Below are positions 4,316-12,280 of a stretch of DNA of 42,512 bases, piece by piece (position 1 is the stretch's first letter; each line of letters starts with the position of its first letter). Below the pieces are notes generated by a model. That model worked only from the letters and a program-made list of their open reading frames with translations. It was not told the DNA's origin and ran no database searches. Origin of the DNA: Elusimicrobiota bacterium (GTDB lineage Bacteria; Elusimicrobiota; Elusimicrobia; Elusimicrobiales; UBA9959); the NCBI GenBank assembly GCA_009773155.1, contig WOVA01000019.1, positions 1 to 42,512 of the forward strand, in the 5' to 3' direction. Both the position numbers and the translations under genes were made by a program.

Positions 4316-4510
4316 ATGGCATTCAAATGTGAACTTTGCGGTAAGGGCCCCAAGGCGGGCAACTCCTACAGCCACTCCCACGTGGCCACCAAGAGACTCT
4401 TCAAGCCCAACCTTCAGAAGCAGAAGATCGTCCTCAAGGGCGCCGTCAAGTCGGTCTACGTCTGCACGACCTGCATAAAGAGCGGCCGCGCGGTAAGACC
4501 GGCCCGCTGA
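4316..4510 (+). CDS. rpmB: 50S ribosomal protein L28
   Basis: This is a 64-aa large-subunit ribosomal protein. The N-terminus MAFKCELCGKGPKAGNSYSH is diagnostic, followed by the TKRLFKPNLQ block and VYVCTTCIKSGR. Four cysteines in two CxxC pairs (5/8 and 50/53) make this the zinc-binding (C+) form. The start is fixed by homology; upstream frame extension would run through the divergent yjbQ promoter. The gene is monocistronic, with a leaderless-type promoter in front and an intrinsic terminator behind. In many bacteria rpmB neighbours rpmG, which is not seen here. Confidence 0.96.
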   Translation: MAFKCELCGKGPKAGNSYSHSHVATKRLFKPNLQKQKIVLKGAVKSVYVCTTCIKSGRAVRPAR

Positions 4511-4540: not shown

Positions 4541-4566
4541 AGCCGGCCTCGCGGTTGGCTTTTTTT
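4541..4566 (+). terminator. Intrinsic terminator of rpmB
   Basis: AGCCGGC pairs with GTTGGCT (two G-U pairs) around CTCGCG, followed by seven T. It lies 30 nt after the rpmB stop. Confidence 0.75.
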
Positions 4567-4630: not shown

Positions 4631-4723
4631 TATCCTTGAATCGGGGAACGTAGTCTGCTATTTTATCCGTTGGAGCCCTAATAGGGGCCGGCGTTCGCTT
4701 CAAAGTCAGCGGAGGAAGTTCAA

Positions 4724-7700
4724 ATGGAACAAGAGCCTAAGCTCGACCCGGCGGCGATAAACGACATAGAGACCGCCAAACTGGCCCTGCGCTGGGCGGT
4801 GGAGAAGATCCACACCCTGCAGGACGACAATTCCCGCCTGAAAGAGGACGCGCGGAACAAGACCTCCGCCGTCCGCGCTCTGACTTCCCAGATCGAGCAG
4901 AAGGAAGAGGTGCTCAAGAAGTGGCAGGGCACCATCCGCACCTGGGAAGAGAACTGGAAGACCCAGACGGCCATGGAGGCCGACCTCAGGGGCAAGATCC
5001 GCGAGCAGATACTCAACGAGGAGACCGCCAACTGGCGCCAGGCGAGGGCCCAGCTCGAGAAGGAGATACAGGCCCTCAAGCAGGAACTCTCCGACAAAGA
5101 GGGCGAGATCGGCCGGATAAAGCTTTCCGCGATAGACGAGTCCAGGAAAACCCAGGAACTTAAGCAGGAGGAGCTCGAGGCCGTACTCAGGCGTCACGAG
5201 GACAATTTCGCCGAGCGGGAGAACACCCTGCGCCTGAAGTTCGAAGCGCTGGAGAAAGAACTGATCGAGAAATCCAGGATCGAGACAGAAAGAGCCGACC
5301 TGGAGGCGCGCGGGCGCCTGGAACTGCGCGAGCGCGAGCTCTCGGCGCTGCACGCGGCCAAGGAAGAGCAGCTCGAGAAGTTCCGCCGCCAGTTGGAAGA
5401 CGAGCACCTGGCCAGGATGGCCGAACTTTCCGACAAGGAAGCGGTCGCGGGACGCGAGTCCCGGCTCAGGCTGGAGGAAGAGCGCACCCGCATCCTCGAG
5501 GAGCTGGAGAAAGAACATGACTCCCGCCTCAGGAAGATAGAAGAACTTTTCTCCGGCCGCCACACGGACGCCCTCAACAGGCTGGAAGAACGGGAAACAG
5601 ACCTCAAGCAGGAAAAGGAAGCCGAGATGGAGGCGATGAAGGCCGCCCATCAGCGCGAGCTTTCCGAGATACGCGGGCGGCTGCAGGGCTACATCCGGCA
5701 GCGCGAGCAGGAATACGTCGAGATGCGCCTGGAAATGGAGCGGCAGGTGGTCGAGCTGGTAAAGAAGCACGACGAGGAGACCAACGCCGCCTACGAGAAG
5801 GCCGTCGAGGAGAGCCGGGAAAAATGGCGCGAGACCGCGCTCTCCCAGCGCAAGGAAATGGAGACCGCCGTCGAGGAGAACAACCGCCGCTGGGAGGCCG
5901 ACTGGCGCAGGCGCGAGAAGGCGGCCGAAGAGTCCGCCGAGTCCCGCCTCAGGTCGGAAACGGACCGCCTCCGCCAGGAGAACAAGCTTAAGGAAGAGTC
6001 GCTGCGCGGCGCGCTGCTGCGCGAGCAGAACGAGTGGGTCCAGCACCACTCGCAGACACAGGAAGACTCCCGGCGCGAGCTGGAGCTGCATTATGAGGAG
6101 CGCCTGCAGTCCTCCCGCCGCTCGCTGGAGGACTCCTACGGGGCCAAGGAAAAGGCGCTGGAGGAGCGCGCCGCCGCGGAGACTAAGCGCTCGACCGCGG
6201 CCTGGCAGGCCAGGGAAGAGGAATGGCTGCTGGAGAAAGAGCGGGTGACGCTGTCGGAGCGGGAGCGCCTGAAGGACGAGTTCCGCAAGTACCGCGGGGT
6301 GCTCAAAGAGAAGTACGACCATTTCGAGGACGAGCTGCGGCTGAAATACGCGCAGCAGGAGCTGGAGGCGTCGGCCGGGCTCAAGGAGCGGCTGGCCGCC
6401 AGGTCGGCCGAGCTGGAAGAGGCCGCCAGGCAGGAGCGCGAGAAGGTCAAGGCCGAGCTGGACGCCCAGCGCCAGGCCCTGCAGGCCAGGGAAGCGCGCC
6501 GGGAAGAGACGCTCAAGGACGTACGCCGCGGCCATCAGCAGGAGCTGCTGGCGGCGGAGAAAGCGGCGGCGGAGAAGCTCCTCGCCTGGAAGGAAGAGCA
6601 GGGGAAACTTTTCGCCGAGAAACTGGCGCAGCGCGAGGAAATGCTCAAGGGCGAATACTCGGACCGGGCCGCCCGGCTGGAGGACGAGAAAGCCTCCTTC
6701 CTGAGGGAACTGGCCGGCAGGGAGAAGGACCTGGAGGCCCGGCTGGAGCAGGCGAAGGCGGAATACGCGCGCCGGCTGGCCGAGGAGAAGCGCCTGCTCT
6801 CGGACTCGCTGAAGCCCAGGGAGCTGGCGATAAAGAACCGCGAGGCGGAGATAGACGCGGCCAAGGCCCGCCTGGAACAGGAGCTGGGCGAAGCCAAGAT
6901 AAAACTGCTGCAGGACGCGCAGGGTAAGGACCACGAAAATTTCGAGAAGCTGGCCCGCGCCCGCGAGGAGATGTACAGGGCCCTGGATACCCACCGGGCA
7001 GCGCTCGAGCAGGAGCATGACAAGCGGCTGGATGAACTGCGCGGCAAGGAAGCCTCCATGCAGAACCATTTCGAGGAGAAGGCCGCCGAACTGGCCGCCG
7101 CGATGCGGCGCCAGCGCGACGAGGAGCGGGAAAAAGCTTCCCTTGAGACCGAGGCGAGGAAAGCCGAGCTGGACACGGCCCTTCAGGAAAAGGTCAAGCG
7201 GCTGGAAGCCGAATCCGCCGACAGGACCGCCCGCCTGGAAGCGTCGATGGACGCCAGGGCCAGGGAGCATCTCTCGGCCCAGGAAGCGTCCCTCAACCGC
7301 CGCCGAGAGGAGCTGGAGGCGGGGGCGCGACAGAAGGAGATGGAACTCGAACGCCGCTACCTGGCGCTCGGACAGAAGATCTCCGCGGACGGCGAGAAGG
7401 ACCACACCGCCTGGGAGGCGCAGAAAGCGGAGCTGATCAGCCGCGAGCGGCAGGCGCTGCGGGCGGAATTCGAGAAAAAAGAGGCCCTGCTCAATCAGAA
7501 GCTCGACGAGGAACTTTCGCGCGCCAAGCAGGCGAGGCTCAAGCTGGAGGAGGAAATCTCCAAGCGCAAGGACGAACTGGAGCGCCACTACCATTCCGAG
7601 ATGGAAAAGGCCCGCGCCGGAATGGACAAGCTGCGCAAAGAGCTCGAAGACGCGCTCCGCGCCAGGCTCAAGGAAGCGGAGGAGGAGAAGAACCGCCTCA

Positions 7701-7846
7701 CGCTGCTGGCCTGCCAGAAAGAGGAAGAATACCTCGACCGTTACCAGAAGAAGGAAGAGGAACTTATGGCCTTCTGGGGGAAAAAGCAGAAAGAGCTGGA
7801 AGAGCGCTACGACAAATTAAAGAAGGAGAAAGGCGGGGCGGCCTGA
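4724..7846 (+). CDS. Giant coiled-coil rod protein 1 (1040 aa), function unknown
   Basis: I do not recognise a named family. The start has a strong Shine-Dalgarno (GGAGGA, 4711-4716). After a short N-terminus (IETAKLALRWAVEKIHTL, residues 16-33) the protein is one continuous E/K/R/A/L-rich heptad sequence to the end. Only three prolines are visible (residues 5 and 9, and one near two-thirds of the length in SLKPRELA). There is one cysteine near the C-terminus and no signal peptide, membrane segment, ATP-binding motif or globular domain. Tryptophans recur along the rod. A single helix of this length would be about 150 nm. It looks paralogous to the next gene: the N-terminal caps (AKLALRWAVEKI / AKMILRLTSELR) and C-terminal caps (KKEEELMAF / RKEAELAKEF) resemble each other. 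The rod is probably a filament, scaffold or spacer, which is inference. Confidence 0.85.
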   Translation: MEQEPKLDPAAINDIETAKLALRWAVEKIHTLQDDNSRLKEDARNKTSAVRALTSQIEQKEEVLKKWQGTIRTWEENWKTQTAMEADLRGKIREQILNEETANWRQARAQLEKEIQALKQELSDKEGEIGRIKLSAIDESRKTQELKQEELEAVLRRHEDNFAERENTLRLKFEALEKELIEKSRIETERADLEARGRLELRERELSALHAAKEEQLEKFRRQLEDEHLARMAELSDKEAVAGRESRLRLEEERTRILEELEKEHDSRLRKIEELFSGRHTDALNRLEERETDLKQEKEAEMEAMKAAHQRELSEIRGRLQGYIRQREQEYVEMRLEMERQVVELVKKHDEETNAAYEKAVEESREKWRETALSQRKEMETAVEENNRRWEADWRRREKAAEESAESRLRSETDRLRQENKLKEESLRGALLREQNEWVQHHSQTQEDSRRELELHYEERLQSSRRSLEDSYGAKEKALEERAAAETKRSTAAWQAREEEWLLEKERVTLSERERLKDEFRKYRGVLKEKYDHFEDELRLKYAQQELEASAGLKERLAARSAELEEAARQEREKVKAELDAQRQALQAREARREETLKDVRRGHQQELLAAEKAAAEKLLAWKEEQGKLFAEKLAQREEMLKGEYSDRAARLEDEKASFLRELAGREKDLEARLEQAKAEYARRLAEEKRLLSDSLKPRELAIKNREAEIDAAKARLEQELGEAKIKLLQDAQGKDHENFEKLARAREEMYRALDTHRAALEQEHDKRLDELRGKEASMQNHFEEKAAELAAAMRRQRDEEREKASLETEARKAELDTALQEKVKRLEAESADRTARLEASMDARAREHLSAQEASLNRRREELEAGARQKEMELERRYLALGQKISADGEKDHTAWEAQKAELISRERQALRAEFEKKEALLNQKLDEELSRAKQARLKLEEEISKRKDELERHYHSEMEKARAGMDKLRKELEDALRARLKEAEEEKNRLTLLACQKEEEYLDRYQKKEEELMAFWGKKQKELEERYDKLKKEKGGAA

Positions 7847-7862
7847 AAGCCCCGCGGCCCAT

Positions 7863-10772
7863 ATGCCCGGAAACGGCGACTACGAGGAGATACTGAGGGA
7901 GACCGAGCTCGACTCGGCCAAGATGATCCTCAGGCTCACCTCCGAGCTCAGGGAAAAGGAGACGGAGCTCTCCTCCCTGCGCTCCCGCTCTTTCGAGGAG
8001 ATACAGCGCAGCCACAAGGCCAAGGACGCCGAATATGAGGCCCTCATGCGGGGCCACGAGGACCGCATCAAGAAGCGCGAGCAGGAAGTAGCGCAGCTCC
8101 TGGTGGAGAAGGAGTCTTCGCTCTGGCAGAAATACCAGGAGATGCTCGACGAGGCGATCTCCCTCCACCGCGGCGAGCTCGAAGAGGAGCGCGACCGCCT
8201 CAGGGCCGAGATAGTCCGGAAGGAAGAGGAGATCTCCGAGCAGAAGCGCAAGCTGCGCTCCGAGATGGAGCAGGTCTTCCGCCAGTGGCAGGGGGAACGC
8301 GAGGCGGAATTCAAGGCCGAAAGGGAAACTTTCATAGAGCAGCTGAAGCTCGGCAGGGAACTGGCCAGGAAAGAGGCCGCCGAACAGATGAAAAGGCTGG
8401 AGGCCATCTGGGAGCAGCGCCTGCTGCAGGCCGGGGAAGAGCAGGACGCCCGGCACCGGCTGGAGACGGAGGCGGCGGCCAGGGACCTGGGAGAAAAGCA
8501 CCTGGCGGAGAGCAAGGGCCTCTCGGAAAAACTCTCGGCGGAATTCACGGAGAGGGAAAAACAGCTCTACGCCACCTATTCCGGCTGGCTGGAAGAGAAC
8601 AAAAAACTCGCGGACAGGACCCTGACAGAGCGGCTCACGCAGATCGAAGCCGATTTCTCCTCCCGGCTTTCCAGGACGGAGAGCCTCCTGGCCGAAGCGG
8701 GCCGGGAACTCGCGCGCAGGCAGCAGGACTGGGCCGACGAAAAAGAGCAGTTCCGCCGCAGGCAGGAAGAGCGCGACCTGGAACTGCTGGCCCGCCAGAA
8801 AGAACTGGAGGAGGAGGCGATAGCCGCCGAGAAGGCCGTGGCCGAAAAGGCCGCCAGGCTGGAGGAAGAGTCACGCCGCGCCCTGGCCGCGGGCCGGGCT
8901 GAACTTGAGGCGAGGGAGAAGCGCCTCGCGCGGGAACTGGGCGCCCGCAAGAACGAATTCACGGCGGAAATGGAGAAGGCCGAAGCCGAAGCCGCGGAAA
9001 AGAAGAAAGAGCTGGCCGCGGAGCAGGCCCGCCTCCAGTCCTACAGGACGCAGATGTCAGAACAGCTTCGCCGGCGGGAAGCGGAACTGGCCGCCTCTTT
9101 CGAGGAGCAGCTGGCGCTGCACAAGAGCTCGCTGGAAGAGGGGCTCGCGATCAGGGAGAAGGCCCTGTCCGCCAAATACGCGGAGGTGGAAAAACGCAGC
9201 GAGGCGGCCAGGAAGCTGCTTGAGCTCCGCGCCGCGGAGAACGCGAAACTTAAGAACGACAACCTGTTCCTCTCGGCCCAGATAGCCGAAAGGGAGAAAG
9301 CCTTTGAATCCTTCTCCGCCTCGGAAAGGGCCAGGCTGGAAGGGCTCAAGAAGAAGCTGGAAGATTCATACCGCGCCCGCACCGCGGAGCTTGAAGCCGC
9401 TTTCTCCGCGCGGGAGAAAGCGGCCGAAGCCGAATTTGAGCGCCGACTGGCTTCTGAAAGGACCAGGTTCGAGGCCAGGGATCTCAACCGGGAACAGGCC
9501 TTCCGGGCCAGGCAGGAGGAACTCCTCGCGAGAGAAGCCGGCTTCGAAAAACGATTCATAGACGAGGTAAAGGACCGCGAGGCGAGGATAGAAGCCGGGT
9601 TCAAGGGGATCGTGGAAGACCTCAACCGCAAACTGGGGGAAAGCGCGGAAGCGGCGGACCGTGCCCTCGCGGCGGAAAAGGCCTCGGCCCGCGCCGAACT
9701 CGAAACACTGCGCGCACGCTACGAAACCCTGCTGGAGGAACGCGCCGCCGCCCAGTCTTCCGCCATACACTCCGCCCGCGAAGAGGCGGCGAAACGGGCG
9801 GTAGAACAGGCGGAAATAGAGAAGCAGACACTGCGGGAAGCCCTGGAGTCCAGGGCGGAAGAGGCGTTGTCCCGCGCCCGCATCATGGAGGAGCAGGCGC
9901 GGCTGGCTGCCAAGGGCCGCGAACAGGCGCTGGAGACCTCCAACCTCGCCAAGCAGGAACTGGAAGCCGTCAATATCCGGCTCGAAGAGCTCGAGCATGA
10001 AAAGCAGCTGCTGATACAGGAGAACATAAACAAGTCCCGCGACCTCAGGCAGGTCATGGAGAAGGATTACCTACAGAAGCTGGAAAAGGTGGAGCAGAAC
10101 TACCTAAGACAGATGGCCGAGGTCGTAAAGAACTCGGGAGTTACCGAGCGGTCGCAGCAGGAGGACTTCTTCGGCAAACTGGAGTTCCTGCGCAAGGAGC
10201 TGACCTCCCGCTACCAGGCCCAGTCCGCCGACCTGGAAAAAGCCTACCTGGAGCGCGAGCGCAAGATAGCGGCCTCGCTGGAAGGGACTTTCTCGCTGAA
10301 GGAGAAAACCCTGCAGACCCGCTACGAGCAGCTTGAAAGGAACTACCAGTCCATCATGTCCGGCAAGCTGATGGAGATAGAAAAGGACCGGGCGGCCGCC
10401 GAGGGCGTGGCCCGGCTGCAGGCCGAGCTGGAGGAAAAGAACCGCGAGCTGGAGGCGAAGGTCCGCACGCAGGACGACAAGCTGCGCGGCCTGGCCGAGA
10501 GGCTGGAGTCCGCCTTCGCCGAACGCCAGAAGGAGATGGAGGCCTCGGTCAGGCTCAAGCACTCCCAGCTGGAGACCGACCGGGCCAAGCTTAAGACCCT
10601 CCTGGAACAGGAGCAGCAGATAGTGGTGAATCTCCAGAAGCGCGAGGTGGCGCTGCAGGACGCCTACACCCGCAAGGAAGCGGAACTGGCCAAAGAATTC
10701 AGGGAGACCCGCGAACGCCTGGAGAAGGAATACCAGAGAAAGCTGGGCGAAAGCGGGCCGGGCGGCGCCTGA
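7863..10772 (+). CDS. Giant coiled-coil rod protein 2 (969 aa), function unknown
   Basis: This is the second member of the tandem rod pair, 16 nt after the first. No good Shine-Dalgarno precedes the ATG, so translation probably depends on the upstream gene. The short N-terminus contains DSAKMILRLTSELREKE, matching the AKLALRWAVEKI segment of protein 1. Everything else is heptad-like and charged. The only prolines are at residue 2 and in the final SGPGGA, and there is no cysteine, so the helix is unbroken for about 955 residues. The C-terminal KEAELAKEFRETRERLEKEY parallels the end of protein 1. No catalytic or membrane motif is present. A paired or heteromeric filament is the simplest inference. 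An intrinsic terminator closes the operon. Confidence 0.85.
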   Translation: MPGNGDYEEILRETELDSAKMILRLTSELREKETELSSLRSRSFEEIQRSHKAKDAEYEALMRGHEDRIKKREQEVAQLLVEKESSLWQKYQEMLDEAISLHRGELEEERDRLRAEIVRKEEEISEQKRKLRSEMEQVFRQWQGEREAEFKAERETFIEQLKLGRELARKEAAEQMKRLEAIWEQRLLQAGEEQDARHRLETEAAARDLGEKHLAESKGLSEKLSAEFTEREKQLYATYSGWLEENKKLADRTLTERLTQIEADFSSRLSRTESLLAEAGRELARRQQDWADEKEQFRRRQEERDLELLARQKELEEEAIAAEKAVAEKAARLEEESRRALAAGRAELEAREKRLARELGARKNEFTAEMEKAEAEAAEKKKELAAEQARLQSYRTQMSEQLRRREAELAASFEEQLALHKSSLEEGLAIREKALSAKYAEVEKRSEAARKLLELRAAENAKLKNDNLFLSAQIAEREKAFESFSASERARLEGLKKKLEDSYRARTAELEAAFSAREKAAEAEFERRLASERTRFEARDLNREQAFRARQEELLAREAGFEKRFIDEVKDREARIEAGFKGIVEDLNRKLGESAEAADRALAAEKASARAELETLRARYETLLEERAAAQSSAIHSAREEAAKRAVEQAEIEKQTLREALESRAEEALSRARIMEEQARLAAKGREQALETSNLAKQELEAVNIRLEELEHEKQLLIQENINKSRDLRQVMEKDYLQKLEKVEQNYLRQMAEVVKNSGVTERSQQEDFFGKLEFLRKELTSRYQAQSADLEKAYLERERKIAASLEGTFSLKEKTLQTRYEQLERNYQSIMSGKLMEIEKDRAAAEGVARLQAELEEKNRELEAKVRTQDDKLRGLAERLESAFAERQKEMEASVRLKHSQLETDRAKLKTLLEQEQQIVVNLQKREVALQDAYTRKEAELAKEFRETRERLEKEYQRKLGESGPGGA

Positions 10773-10776
10773 AAAT

Positions 10777-10815
10777 GCCGTCGGGGGGCGCCCCGGCGGG
10801 CCTCTCCTCTTTTTT
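10777..10815 (+). terminator. Intrinsic terminator of the coiled-coil operon
   Basis: GCCGTCGGGG (10777-10786) pairs with CCCCGGCGGGC (one bulge, one G-U) around GGCG, followed by a CT-rich run ending in T's. It starts 5 nt after the stop. Confidence 0.7.
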
Positions 10816-10816
10816 C

Positions 10817-10845
10817 TTGACTGCCGGTATGAAATTTTAAATAAT
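10817..10845 (+). promoter_or_regulatory. Promoter of pdaD-speB (leaderless)
   Basis: TTGACT (10817-10822), 17 nt, then AATAAT (10840-10845), ending 7 nt before the pdaD ATG. No Shine-Dalgarno is present. The -35 box abuts the T-run of the preceding terminator. Confidence 0.6.
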
Positions 10846-10852
10846 AGTCCAC

Positions 10853-11401
10853 ATGTCAACTCTCGTTCCCAAAGAAGTTTTCCTTACCAAAGGCCTGGGC
10901 CGCCACAAGGAAAAACTCGCCAGCTTCGAAGAGGCCCTCCGGGACGCCAAGATAGCCAAATACAACCTTGTCCACGTCTCCAGCATCTTCCCCCCTCACT
11001 GCAAGGTGATACCGAGGCACAAGGGCGTGGAGAAGCTCAAGCCCGGCCAGATCCTGCACTGCGTGCTGAGCCGCAACACGGTAAGCGAGAACCACCGGCT
11101 GATCGCCTCGTCCGTCGGCCTCGCGCTGCCCAAGGACAGGAGCCATTACGGCTACATCTCGGAGCATCACTCTTTCGGAGAGACGGACGGGCAGACCGGG
11201 GAGTACTCCGAGGACCTGGCGGCGCTGATGCTCTCCACCATACAGGGCATCGAGTTCGGCTGCGAGACCACCTGGGACCAGAAGGAAGAGATCTGGAAGC
11301 TCAGCGGCAAGATAGTCAAGACCACCAATATCACCCAGTCCGCCATAGGCTCTGAAGGCGTCTGGACCACTACGGTGGCCGCGGCCGTCTTCCTGTTCTG
11401 A
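10853..11401 (+). CDS. pdaD: Pyruvoyl-dependent arginine decarboxylase
   Basis: This enzyme converts arginine to agmatine with a self-generated pyruvoyl cofactor, the first step of putrescine synthesis (182 aa). The proenzyme cleaves itself between two serines, here S43-S44 in LVHVSSIFPPHC, the same context as the characterised archaeal enzyme. Other family blocks are SVGLALP, GYISEHHSFGET and the C-terminal WTTTVAAAVFLF. The gene is immediately followed by agmatinase (TGA then ATG with no gap), which confirms the pathway. The promoter ends 7 nt before the ATG and there is no Shine-Dalgarno, so a leaderless mRNA is likely. Confidence 0.95.
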   Translation: MSTLVPKEVFLTKGLGRHKEKLASFEEALRDAKIAKYNLVHVSSIFPPHCKVIPRHKGVEKLKPGQILHCVLSRNTVSENHRLIASSVGLALPKDRSHYGYISEHHSFGETDGQTGEYSEDLAALMLSTIQGIEFGCETTWDQKEEIWKLSGKIVKTTNITQSAIGSEGVWTTTVAAAVFLF

Positions 11402-12280
11402 ATGGACATTAAACCCAACAAGGTCCAGTTCGTCACGGCGGACAGCTCGCCGCTGGAGACAGCCAGTTTCGCGGTGGTCCCGGTTCCCTGGGAGAAGACG
11501 ACCTCCTACGGCCACGGCACGGCCAGGGGACCGGCGGCCGTCATAGACGCGTCCTGGCAACTGGAGTTCCTGGACGAGGAGACCGGCCGCGAGACCTGGA
11601 AAGACGGCATTTTCACGGCGGCGCCGGTGAACTGCTCCCTCAGCGAAAAGAAGTTCTTCCCTTACCTGGAGGACTACGTCGGCGGCCTGCTCGCCGCGAC
11701 CAAGGCGGTCCCCTTCTTTATAGGCGGAGAACACAGCGTCACCCAGGGGTTTCTCCCCCCCTTCCAGAAAAAATACGGGGACCTCTCTATACTTCATTTC
11801 GACGCCCACGCGGACCTGCGTCCGGAATACGAAGGGACTCCGCGCAGCCACGCCTCCGCGGTTTACCCCGCCTCGCGGACCACGCCGACCGTGCAGGTGG
11901 GCATACGCAGCGTCTCGCACGACGAGAAGGTCTACATGAACGCCGGTAAAGTGAAGACCTTCCTGGCTCATGACCACCGCGACAACCAGGCGCTGATACG
12001 CAAGGTGCTCGCCTCCCTGACCGGCACCGTTTATATCACCATAGACGTGGACGGCTTCGATCCGCACGTCATGCCGGCTACCGGAACCCCGCAGCCGGGC
12101 GGCTTCGGCTGGTACGAGGCGCTGGACCTCTTCCGCGCCGTCTGCTCTAAAAAGAAAGTCGTAGGCGTCGACATAGTGGAAGTGGCGCCACGCAAGGCCG
12201 ACGCCGTGACCGAGTTCAACGCGGCCAAGCTGGCCTACCGCCTGATGGGCTACATTTCCGCCGGAGGCCGGCGGAAATGA
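11402..12280 (+). CDS. speB: Agmatinase (ureohydrolase family)
   Basis: This enzyme hydrolyses agmatine to putrescine and urea using two Mn ions (292 aa). The metal ligands are visible in GGEH111, FD134-A-H136-A-D138 and in DVDGFDP, followed by the TGTPQPGG substrate loop of the ureohydrolase fold. The C-terminal VVGVDIVEVAP and FNAAKLAYRLMGYI are also family blocks. Arginase is an alternative from fold alone, but direct coupling to pdaD makes agmatinase much more likely. The ATG follows the pdaD stop without a gap, and the stop overlaps the ATG of the lipoprotein gene. Confidence 0.93.
   Translation: MDIKPNKVQFVTADSSPLETASFAVVPVPWEKTTSYGHGTARGPAAVIDASWQLEFLDEETGRETWKDGIFTAAPVNCSLSEKKFFPYLEDYVGGLLAATKAVPFFIGGEHSVTQGFLPPFQKKYGDLSILHFDAHADLRPEYEGTPRSHASAVYPASRTTPTVQVGIRSVSHDEKVYMNAGKVKTFLAHDHRDNQALIRKVLASLTGTVYITIDVDGFDPHVMPATGTPQPGGFGWYEALDLFRAVCSKKKVVGVDIVEVAPRKADAVTEFNAAKLAYRLMGYISAGGRRK

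What the first reader, a model, noticed from the sequence alone, without database searches (positions are those of the whole stretch)
4724..10772. Tandem pair of ~1000-residue, proline-free coiled-coil rods with no known domain
Two adjacent genes (1040 and 969 aa), with their own promoter and terminator, encode proteins that are almost entirely one heptad-like helix. Prolines occur only at residues 5, 9 and once in SLKPRELA in the first, and at residue 2 and the C-terminal SGPGGA in the second. The ends of the two proteins resemble each other (AKLALRWAVEKI vs AKMILRLTSELR; KKEEELMAF vs RKEAELAKEF), which suggests duplication followed by pairing. There is no ATPase, membrane or secretion signal, so SMC and MukB types are excluded. 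At about 0.15 nm per residue each rod would be about 150 nm, long enough to span or organise a cell compartment.
Basis: partly seen in the sequence, partly recalled or inferred. Interest (0 to 1): 0.65.

Follow-up and report, generated by a model that had tools for sequence, protein, structure and literature searches.

The report
Capped long coiled-coil rods in Elusimicrobia
Two neighbouring genes encode very long, almost wholly helical rod proteins; the first belongs to a previously undescribed family, found so far only in Elusimicrobiota bacteria, whose other members sit beside, or are fused to, cell-division, signalling and sugar-export genes, so the rods are probably internal scaffolds of the cell.

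Summary
Two conserved genes, A (1040 aa) and B (969 aa), encode nearly proline-free rods under protein-level selection, with no Pfam, NCBIfam or PHROG domain.

The interpretation needs three corrections. (1) The repeat is not heptad: the hydrophobic period is 3.63-3.68 residues (hendecad type), and ortholog length changes keep that helical phase. (2) A's N-terminal cap is not shared with B. It is shared with two other rods of the same genome. B's start instead matches A from residue ~113, so B looks like a cap-less sister of A. (3) Length changes in A and B are not matched, which gives no support to full-length in-register A:B pairing.

The cap defines a rod family with a hit in 104 of 285 Elusimicrobiota genomes; the order rpmB-A-B is kept within one family. 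One paralogue lies 6-15.5 kb upstream of ftsZ in 24 genomes, beside a coiled-coil histidine kinase in several, and is fused to such a kinase in two other families. Another lies beside Wza/Wzc export genes.

Most likely a cytoplasmic scaffold family that works like FilP/Scy/DivIVA but is not a member (no GYDxxEVD motif, no alanine-rich core). Molecular function is inferred, not shown.

The parts
4724..7846 (+). Rod A, 1040 aa, nearly all helix, hydrophobic period ~3.67
4724..5008 (+). A residues 1-95: conserved N-terminal cap (LDPxxINDxETAKLALRWAVEKI...), the signature of the rod family; conserved W24, W67, W74
5060..7846 (+). A residues 113-1040: rod; residues 113-172 match the start of B
7863..10772 (+). 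Rod B, 969 aa, cap-less sister of A, 16 nt downstream; rod length between anchors (916 residues) identical in 13 of 22 compared genomes
4316..4510 (+). rpmB (ribosomal protein L28), directly upstream of A in nearly all f1 loci examined: conserved neighbour, not thought to be part of the rod function
4541..4560 (+). intrinsic terminator-like hairpin after rpmB
10778..10799 (+). 9-bp GC-rich hairpin after B with T6 at 10810-10815; possible terminator
   Evidence: sequence; not accepted by the scan
10853..11401 (+). pyruvoyl-dependent arginine decarboxylase, frequent downstream neighbour with its own promoter-like site 10817-10845; not part of the system
11402..12280 (+). arginase/agmatinase family gene, frequent downstream neighbour; not part of the system

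Best explanation
A is the general member of a family of cytoplasmic scaffold rods: a ~95-residue N-terminal cap followed by a ~900-residue coiled coil with hendecad-type repeats (about 130-140 nm if straight). The cap is the shared module, presumably for docking or self-assembly; the rod spaces and multimerises. B is a sister rod that lacks the cap and is made from the same operon. Paralogues with the same cap are placed at the division operon (ftsQ-ftsA-ftsZ) with, or fused to, a histidine kinase, and at Wza/Wzc polysaccharide export. The likely mechanism is a nucleotide-free, intermediate-filament-like scaffold that positions envelope growth, division, signalling and export machines, as FilP, Scy and DivIVA do in Actinobacteria. 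Shown here: the anatomy, conservation, cap family, gene contexts and kinase fusions. Inferred: oligomerisation, filament formation, localisation and the function of A and B themselves.
For: A-B order and rpmB linkage conserved over about 10 genera at 28-50% identity. Rod periodicity 3.60-3.68 in all rods tested, with seam occupancy 0.67-0.70 LIVMFYW vs 0.36-0.37 shuffled, and length changes in multiples of 3.63 (p ~1e-4 against jittered lengths). Cap profile in 104 of 285 Elusimicrobiota genomes, typically 4 hits per f1 genome. An A-only cap profile finds the C34- and C14-type rods. C34-type rod on the same contig as ftsZ, 6-15.5 kb upstream, in 24 genomes, with ftsA/ftsZ confirmed by Pfam. 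Kinase and response regulator adjacent or fused: 2262-aa and 2092-aa single ORFs. C14-type rod beside Wza/Wzc. No TM, signal or ATPase.
Against: A and B themselves have only housekeeping neighbours (rpmB, arginine decarboxylase), so their role rests on paralogues. Gene neighbourhood is weak evidence of function. All f1 genomes also have MreB and 49 of 51 have a detected FtsZ, so the rods do not replace a known cytoskeleton. No significant long-period charge repeat that would indicate staggered filament assembly. AlphaFold models are low confidence (pLDDT ~67, 2-3 sequences) and say nothing on oligomers. The C34-type rod is not linked to ftsZ in G013 (L073).
Confidence: 0.5

Rival explanations
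1. The rods are shape-determining cytoskeletal filaments of the crescentin type: A and B co-polymerise into a cell-long filament, and the signalling or export contexts of paralogues are later side roles.
For: Long rods without enzymatic domains and with strict rod-length conservation of B; a conserved pair made from one transcription unit.
Against: No significant charge repeat; A lengths vary independently of B; the wider family is single-rod and several members are tied to signalling and export genes.
Confidence: 0.2
2. The rods are mechanical spacers or signal cables: the cap docks at one site and the C-end carries or contacts a kinase or partner ~130 nm away, so length is a ruler.
For: Kinase fused to the far end of the rod in two families; exact length of B; length changes keep helical phase.
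Against: C14-type rods range from about 913 to 2957 aa within family f1, which is not what a ruler needs; A and B have no kinase neighbour.
Confidence: 0.15
3. Single stable alpha-helices (charged ER/K helices) rather than coiled coils, acting as rigid monomeric arms.
For: High E/K/R content and i to i+4 salt-bridge excess (63 observed vs 45 expected in A).
Against: A continuous hydrophobic seam with ~70% large hydrophobics predicts multimers; the i+4 excess is modest.
Confidence: 0.07
4. An exported or surface filament, or a phage tape-measure or tail fibre.
For: Length and low complexity only.
Against: No signal peptide or TM segment, no PHROG match, no phage or plasmid match, position beside rpmB conserved across genera.
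Confidence: 0.03

Closest known systems
FilP and Scy (Streptomyces coiled-coil scaffold proteins; DivIVA-like superfamily, PMC9858780)
   Same: Short conserved N-terminal module followed by a very long rod with hendecad stretches; no enzyme domain; linked to growth and division.
   Different: DivIVA-like motif GY[DN]xx[QE]V[DN] absent in A, B and the paralogues tested; cap unrelated by Pfam scan; FilP/Scy cores are alanine-rich (PMC9858780) whereas here alanine is not enriched in the seam, which holds large and aromatic residues.
Crescentin and other intermediate-filament-like coiled-coil-rich proteins
   Same: Rod-only cytoplasmic proteins without nucleotide binding.
   Different: No Pfam match; period 3.63-3.68 instead of heptads; a conserved cap family with kinase-fused members.
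AglZ of Myxococcus (long coiled coil with a receiver-like N-terminus; from general knowledge)
   Same: A long cytoplasmic rod tied to signalling.
   Different: The cap is not a receiver domain by Pfam; here a kinase is fused at the C-end in some members.
Mad20/23/25/26 magnetosome coiled-coil proteins (PMC12748827)
   Same: Coiled-coil scaffolds, considered because Elusimicrobiota include magnetotactic members.
   Different: That paper reports the chain-forming Mad proteins missing from Elusimicrobiota; no magnetosome context was seen here.
SMC, MukB, RecN
   Same: Long coiled coils.
   Different: No ATPase head domains.

Membership tests
DivIVA-like superfamily (DivIVA, GpsB, FilP, Scy) | N-terminal motif GY[DN]xx[QE]V[DN] before the coil | tested here: not met
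   absent in 27 A, 23 B and 4 paralogue rods; no DivIVA Pfam hit for the caps at E <= 10
DivIVA-like superfamily (DivIVA, GpsB, FilP, Scy) | long rod with hendecad periodicity (FilP/Scy) | tested here: met
DivIVA-like superfamily (DivIVA, GpsB, FilP, Scy) | alanine-rich core of the hendecad stretches (FilP/Scy, PMC9858780) | tested here: not met
   alanine 0.05 (A) and 0.08 (B) at the seam, enriched on the opposite face
Crescentin/intermediate-filament-like | self-assembly into filaments without nucleotide | not testable with these tools
   needs protein
Crescentin/intermediate-filament-like | sequence family membership | tested here: not met
   no Pfam or NCBIfam family
SMC/MukB | N- and C-terminal ATPase head | tested here: not met
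   no domain hit, no head-like globular region
Capped-rod family described here | ~80-residue N-terminal cap at the start of a long rod (rod A) | tested here: met
   met for A independently of B
Capped-rod family described here | ~80-residue N-terminal cap at the start of a long rod (rod B) | tested here: not met
   A-cap profile does not find the start of B
Phage tape measure or tail protein | PHROG family or phage gene context | tested here: not met

The most novel reading that the evidence does not exclude
Free-living Elusimicrobiota run a phylum-specific, nucleotide-free scaffold system: one cap module on several very long hendecad rods that assigns a separate rod to cell division plus two-component signalling, to polysaccharide export and to general cell architecture, with kinases built directly onto some rods, and it is absent from the small-genome family f2.
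Probability: 0.3. Interest if true: 0.75.

Novelty: new variant of a known kind. Interest (0 to 1): 0.58.

Why it matters
It would show that a little-studied phylum evolved its own counterpart of the DivIVA/FilP/Scy scaffolds, with a rod placed at the division operon and kinases adjacent or fused to rods. It gives a searchable signature (the cap) and a clear gene set to test in any culturable member, and adds a large natural family with hendecad-type repeats and large-residue cores, of use to coiled-coil structural work.

Tried and rejected
Heptad coiled coil: rejected by periodicity. Antisense gene of 962 aa: rejected by codon-position substitutions. A and B sharing the same N-cap: rejected; note that alignment A1 contains one B row, so its B hits are not independent. 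Alignment A4 contained a mistyped sequence and was discarded; A5 replaced it. In-register A:B heterodimer over the full length: not supported. Charge-repeat evidence for filaments: none significant. Solved-structure relatives of the cap: only generic coiled coils at E >= 0.19. ZapB-like Pfam hit of the A cap (E 1.9e-5, below the curated cut-off) judged to be coiled-coil background. Pairwise indel-length counts were noisy; only the anchored net lengths were used.

Full report
WHAT IS THERE. The window is a whole contig (G000:C41) of an Elusimicrobiales genome; the nearest named records are Elusimicrobia/Elusimicrobiales MAGs. ORFs A (4724-7846, 1040 aa) and B (7863-10772, 969 aa) are as reported, with three and two prolines. 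Both are under protein-level selection in the + frame: third-position changes dominate (78/39/309 and 107/63/321), so the 962-aa antisense ORF is an artefact. There is no TM or signal segment and no Pfam, NCBIfam or PHROG family. They form a unit between the terminator-like hairpin of rpmB (4541-4560) and the promoter-like site of the arginine decarboxylase gene (10817-10845); a promoter for A was not found by the scan and the hairpin after B is only a possible terminator.

HENDECADS, NOT HEPTADS. The hydrophobic period is 3.66-3.68 in A orthologs and 3.60-3.67 in B, with no peak at 3.5. In 77-residue windows the 3.56-3.74 band beats the heptad band in 100% (A) and 96% (B); at the seam 67-70% of residues are LIVMFYW against 36-37% after shuffling. 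Alanine is not enriched in the seam but on the opposite face, unlike the alanine-rich cores reported for FilP and Scy (PMC9858780). By that paper's reasoning, large core residues in hendecads favour oligomers above dimers; for A and B this is an inference. Net length changes between orthologs (A: -138, -83, -47, -18, -11, -7, +11, +18, +51; B: -69, -62, -45, -33, -29) cluster at whole multiples of 3.63 residues (R 0.80, p ~1e-4 against lengths jittered by +-3; the period was the best of three taken from the hydrophobic spectra; the B values alone are not decisive). B keeps exactly 916 residues between two anchors in 13 of 22 genomes, down to ~40% identity. AlphaFold gives nearly all helix at low confidence.

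THE PAIR. Orthologs of A or its cap relatives are found in 34 of 61 relatives, in 12 of 16 genera, none in family f2. The order rpmB-A-B is kept in nearly all f1 loci examined, usually followed by pyruvoyl arginine decarboxylase and agmatinase. B has its own N-terminal signature and occurs only in f1 (43 genomes with strong hits); genus g7 has A without B. In other families (f10, f12-f15) A-like rods of about 770-1340 aa stand alone.

A AND B ARE SISTERS WITH AN OFFSET. A profile of A residues 1-95 finds paralogue rods (iE 1e-15 to 6e-9) but not the start of B. A profile of B residues 1-95 finds A residues 113-172 in constant register (iE down to 3e-8; other rods >= 4e-3). The C-ends match more weakly. 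So B corresponds to A without its cap.

THE CAP FAMILY. The cap consensus includes ITDxETAKLALRWALEKI. A profile hit is present in 104 of 285 Elusimicrobiota genomes of at least 80% completeness: about 4 hits per genome in f1, 1-7 in f6 and f9-f15, and only three borderline hits (E 4e-4 to 1e-3) in the small-genome family f2. The profile contains one B row, so B counts in f1 are not independent. In the window's own genome a single-sequence search with the A cap finds two other rods, at C34 and C14.

CONTEXTS OF PARALOGUES. (i) The C34-type rod lies upstream of a small ftsQ-position gene (no Pfam match), ftsA and ftsZ: cap and ftsZ are on the same contig 6-15.5 kb apart in 24 genomes of genera g1, g4, g9 and g12 (positions; gene order; ftsA and ftsZ by Pfam). 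In g1 and g4 it is followed directly by a coiled-coil histidine kinase and a response regulator with a long C-terminal extension, and preceded by a PorV-like outer-membrane protein and a protein with a type IX-like sorting domain. In families f14 and f15 cap, rod and kinase are one ORF (2092 and 2262 aa) followed by the same kind of response regulator; linkage to ftsZ was not shown there. It is not linked to ftsZ in G013. (ii) The C14-type rod lies beside Wza/Wzc export genes and a small coiled-coil and a TM protein in f1 (g1, g13), and beside distant Wza/Wzc in f14; rods of this type reach 2957 aa.

INTERPRETATION. Rods sharing one cap are repeatedly found with envelope, division, signalling or export genes. 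The simplest reading is a family of cytoplasmic scaffolds, with A (and its cap-less partner B) as the general member. This works like FilP/Scy/DivIVA, but the defining motif is absent, so it is not filed there. What A and B do is inferred from paralogues; neighbours of A and B are housekeeping genes. MreB is present in all f1 genomes, so the rods add to, rather than replace, the usual cytoskeleton.

LIMITS. Other phyla could not be searched with the cap profile. Genomes are draft MAGs, so absences in single genomes may be gaps. Structure prediction could use only 2-3 sequences.

Noticed in passing
L152:7263-14051 (-) and L153:6547-12822 (+): Single ORFs of 2262 and 2092 aa with the rod cap at the N-end and a histidine kinase at the C-end, followed by a response regulator with a long C-terminal extension.
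   Followed up: partly
L142:7636-16509 (+) (G011:C26): A cap-bearing rod of 2957 aa, about 430 nm if one straight helix; same type as 913-aa and 1039-aa rods in relatives.
   Followed up: no
L146, L149, L151: The C34-type rod is syntenic with ftsA, ftsZ, a pilT-like ATPase and cmk-like genes in several genera.
   Followed up: yes
L150:736-4412, L039:5294-8736: PorV-like outer-membrane protein (with LysM) and proteins with CHU_C/type IX-like C-terminal domains just upstream of the C34-type rod in Elusimicrobiota.
   Followed up: partly
L040:5455-6779 (-): Conserved 239-aa coiled-coil protein and 201-aa membrane protein between the C14-type rod and Wza/Wzc; no Pfam family.
   Followed up: no
window 4706-7594 (-): 962-aa antisense ORF opposite A, also open (963 aa) in a same-genus genome; the codon-position test shows it is a by-product of codon usage.
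   Followed up: yes
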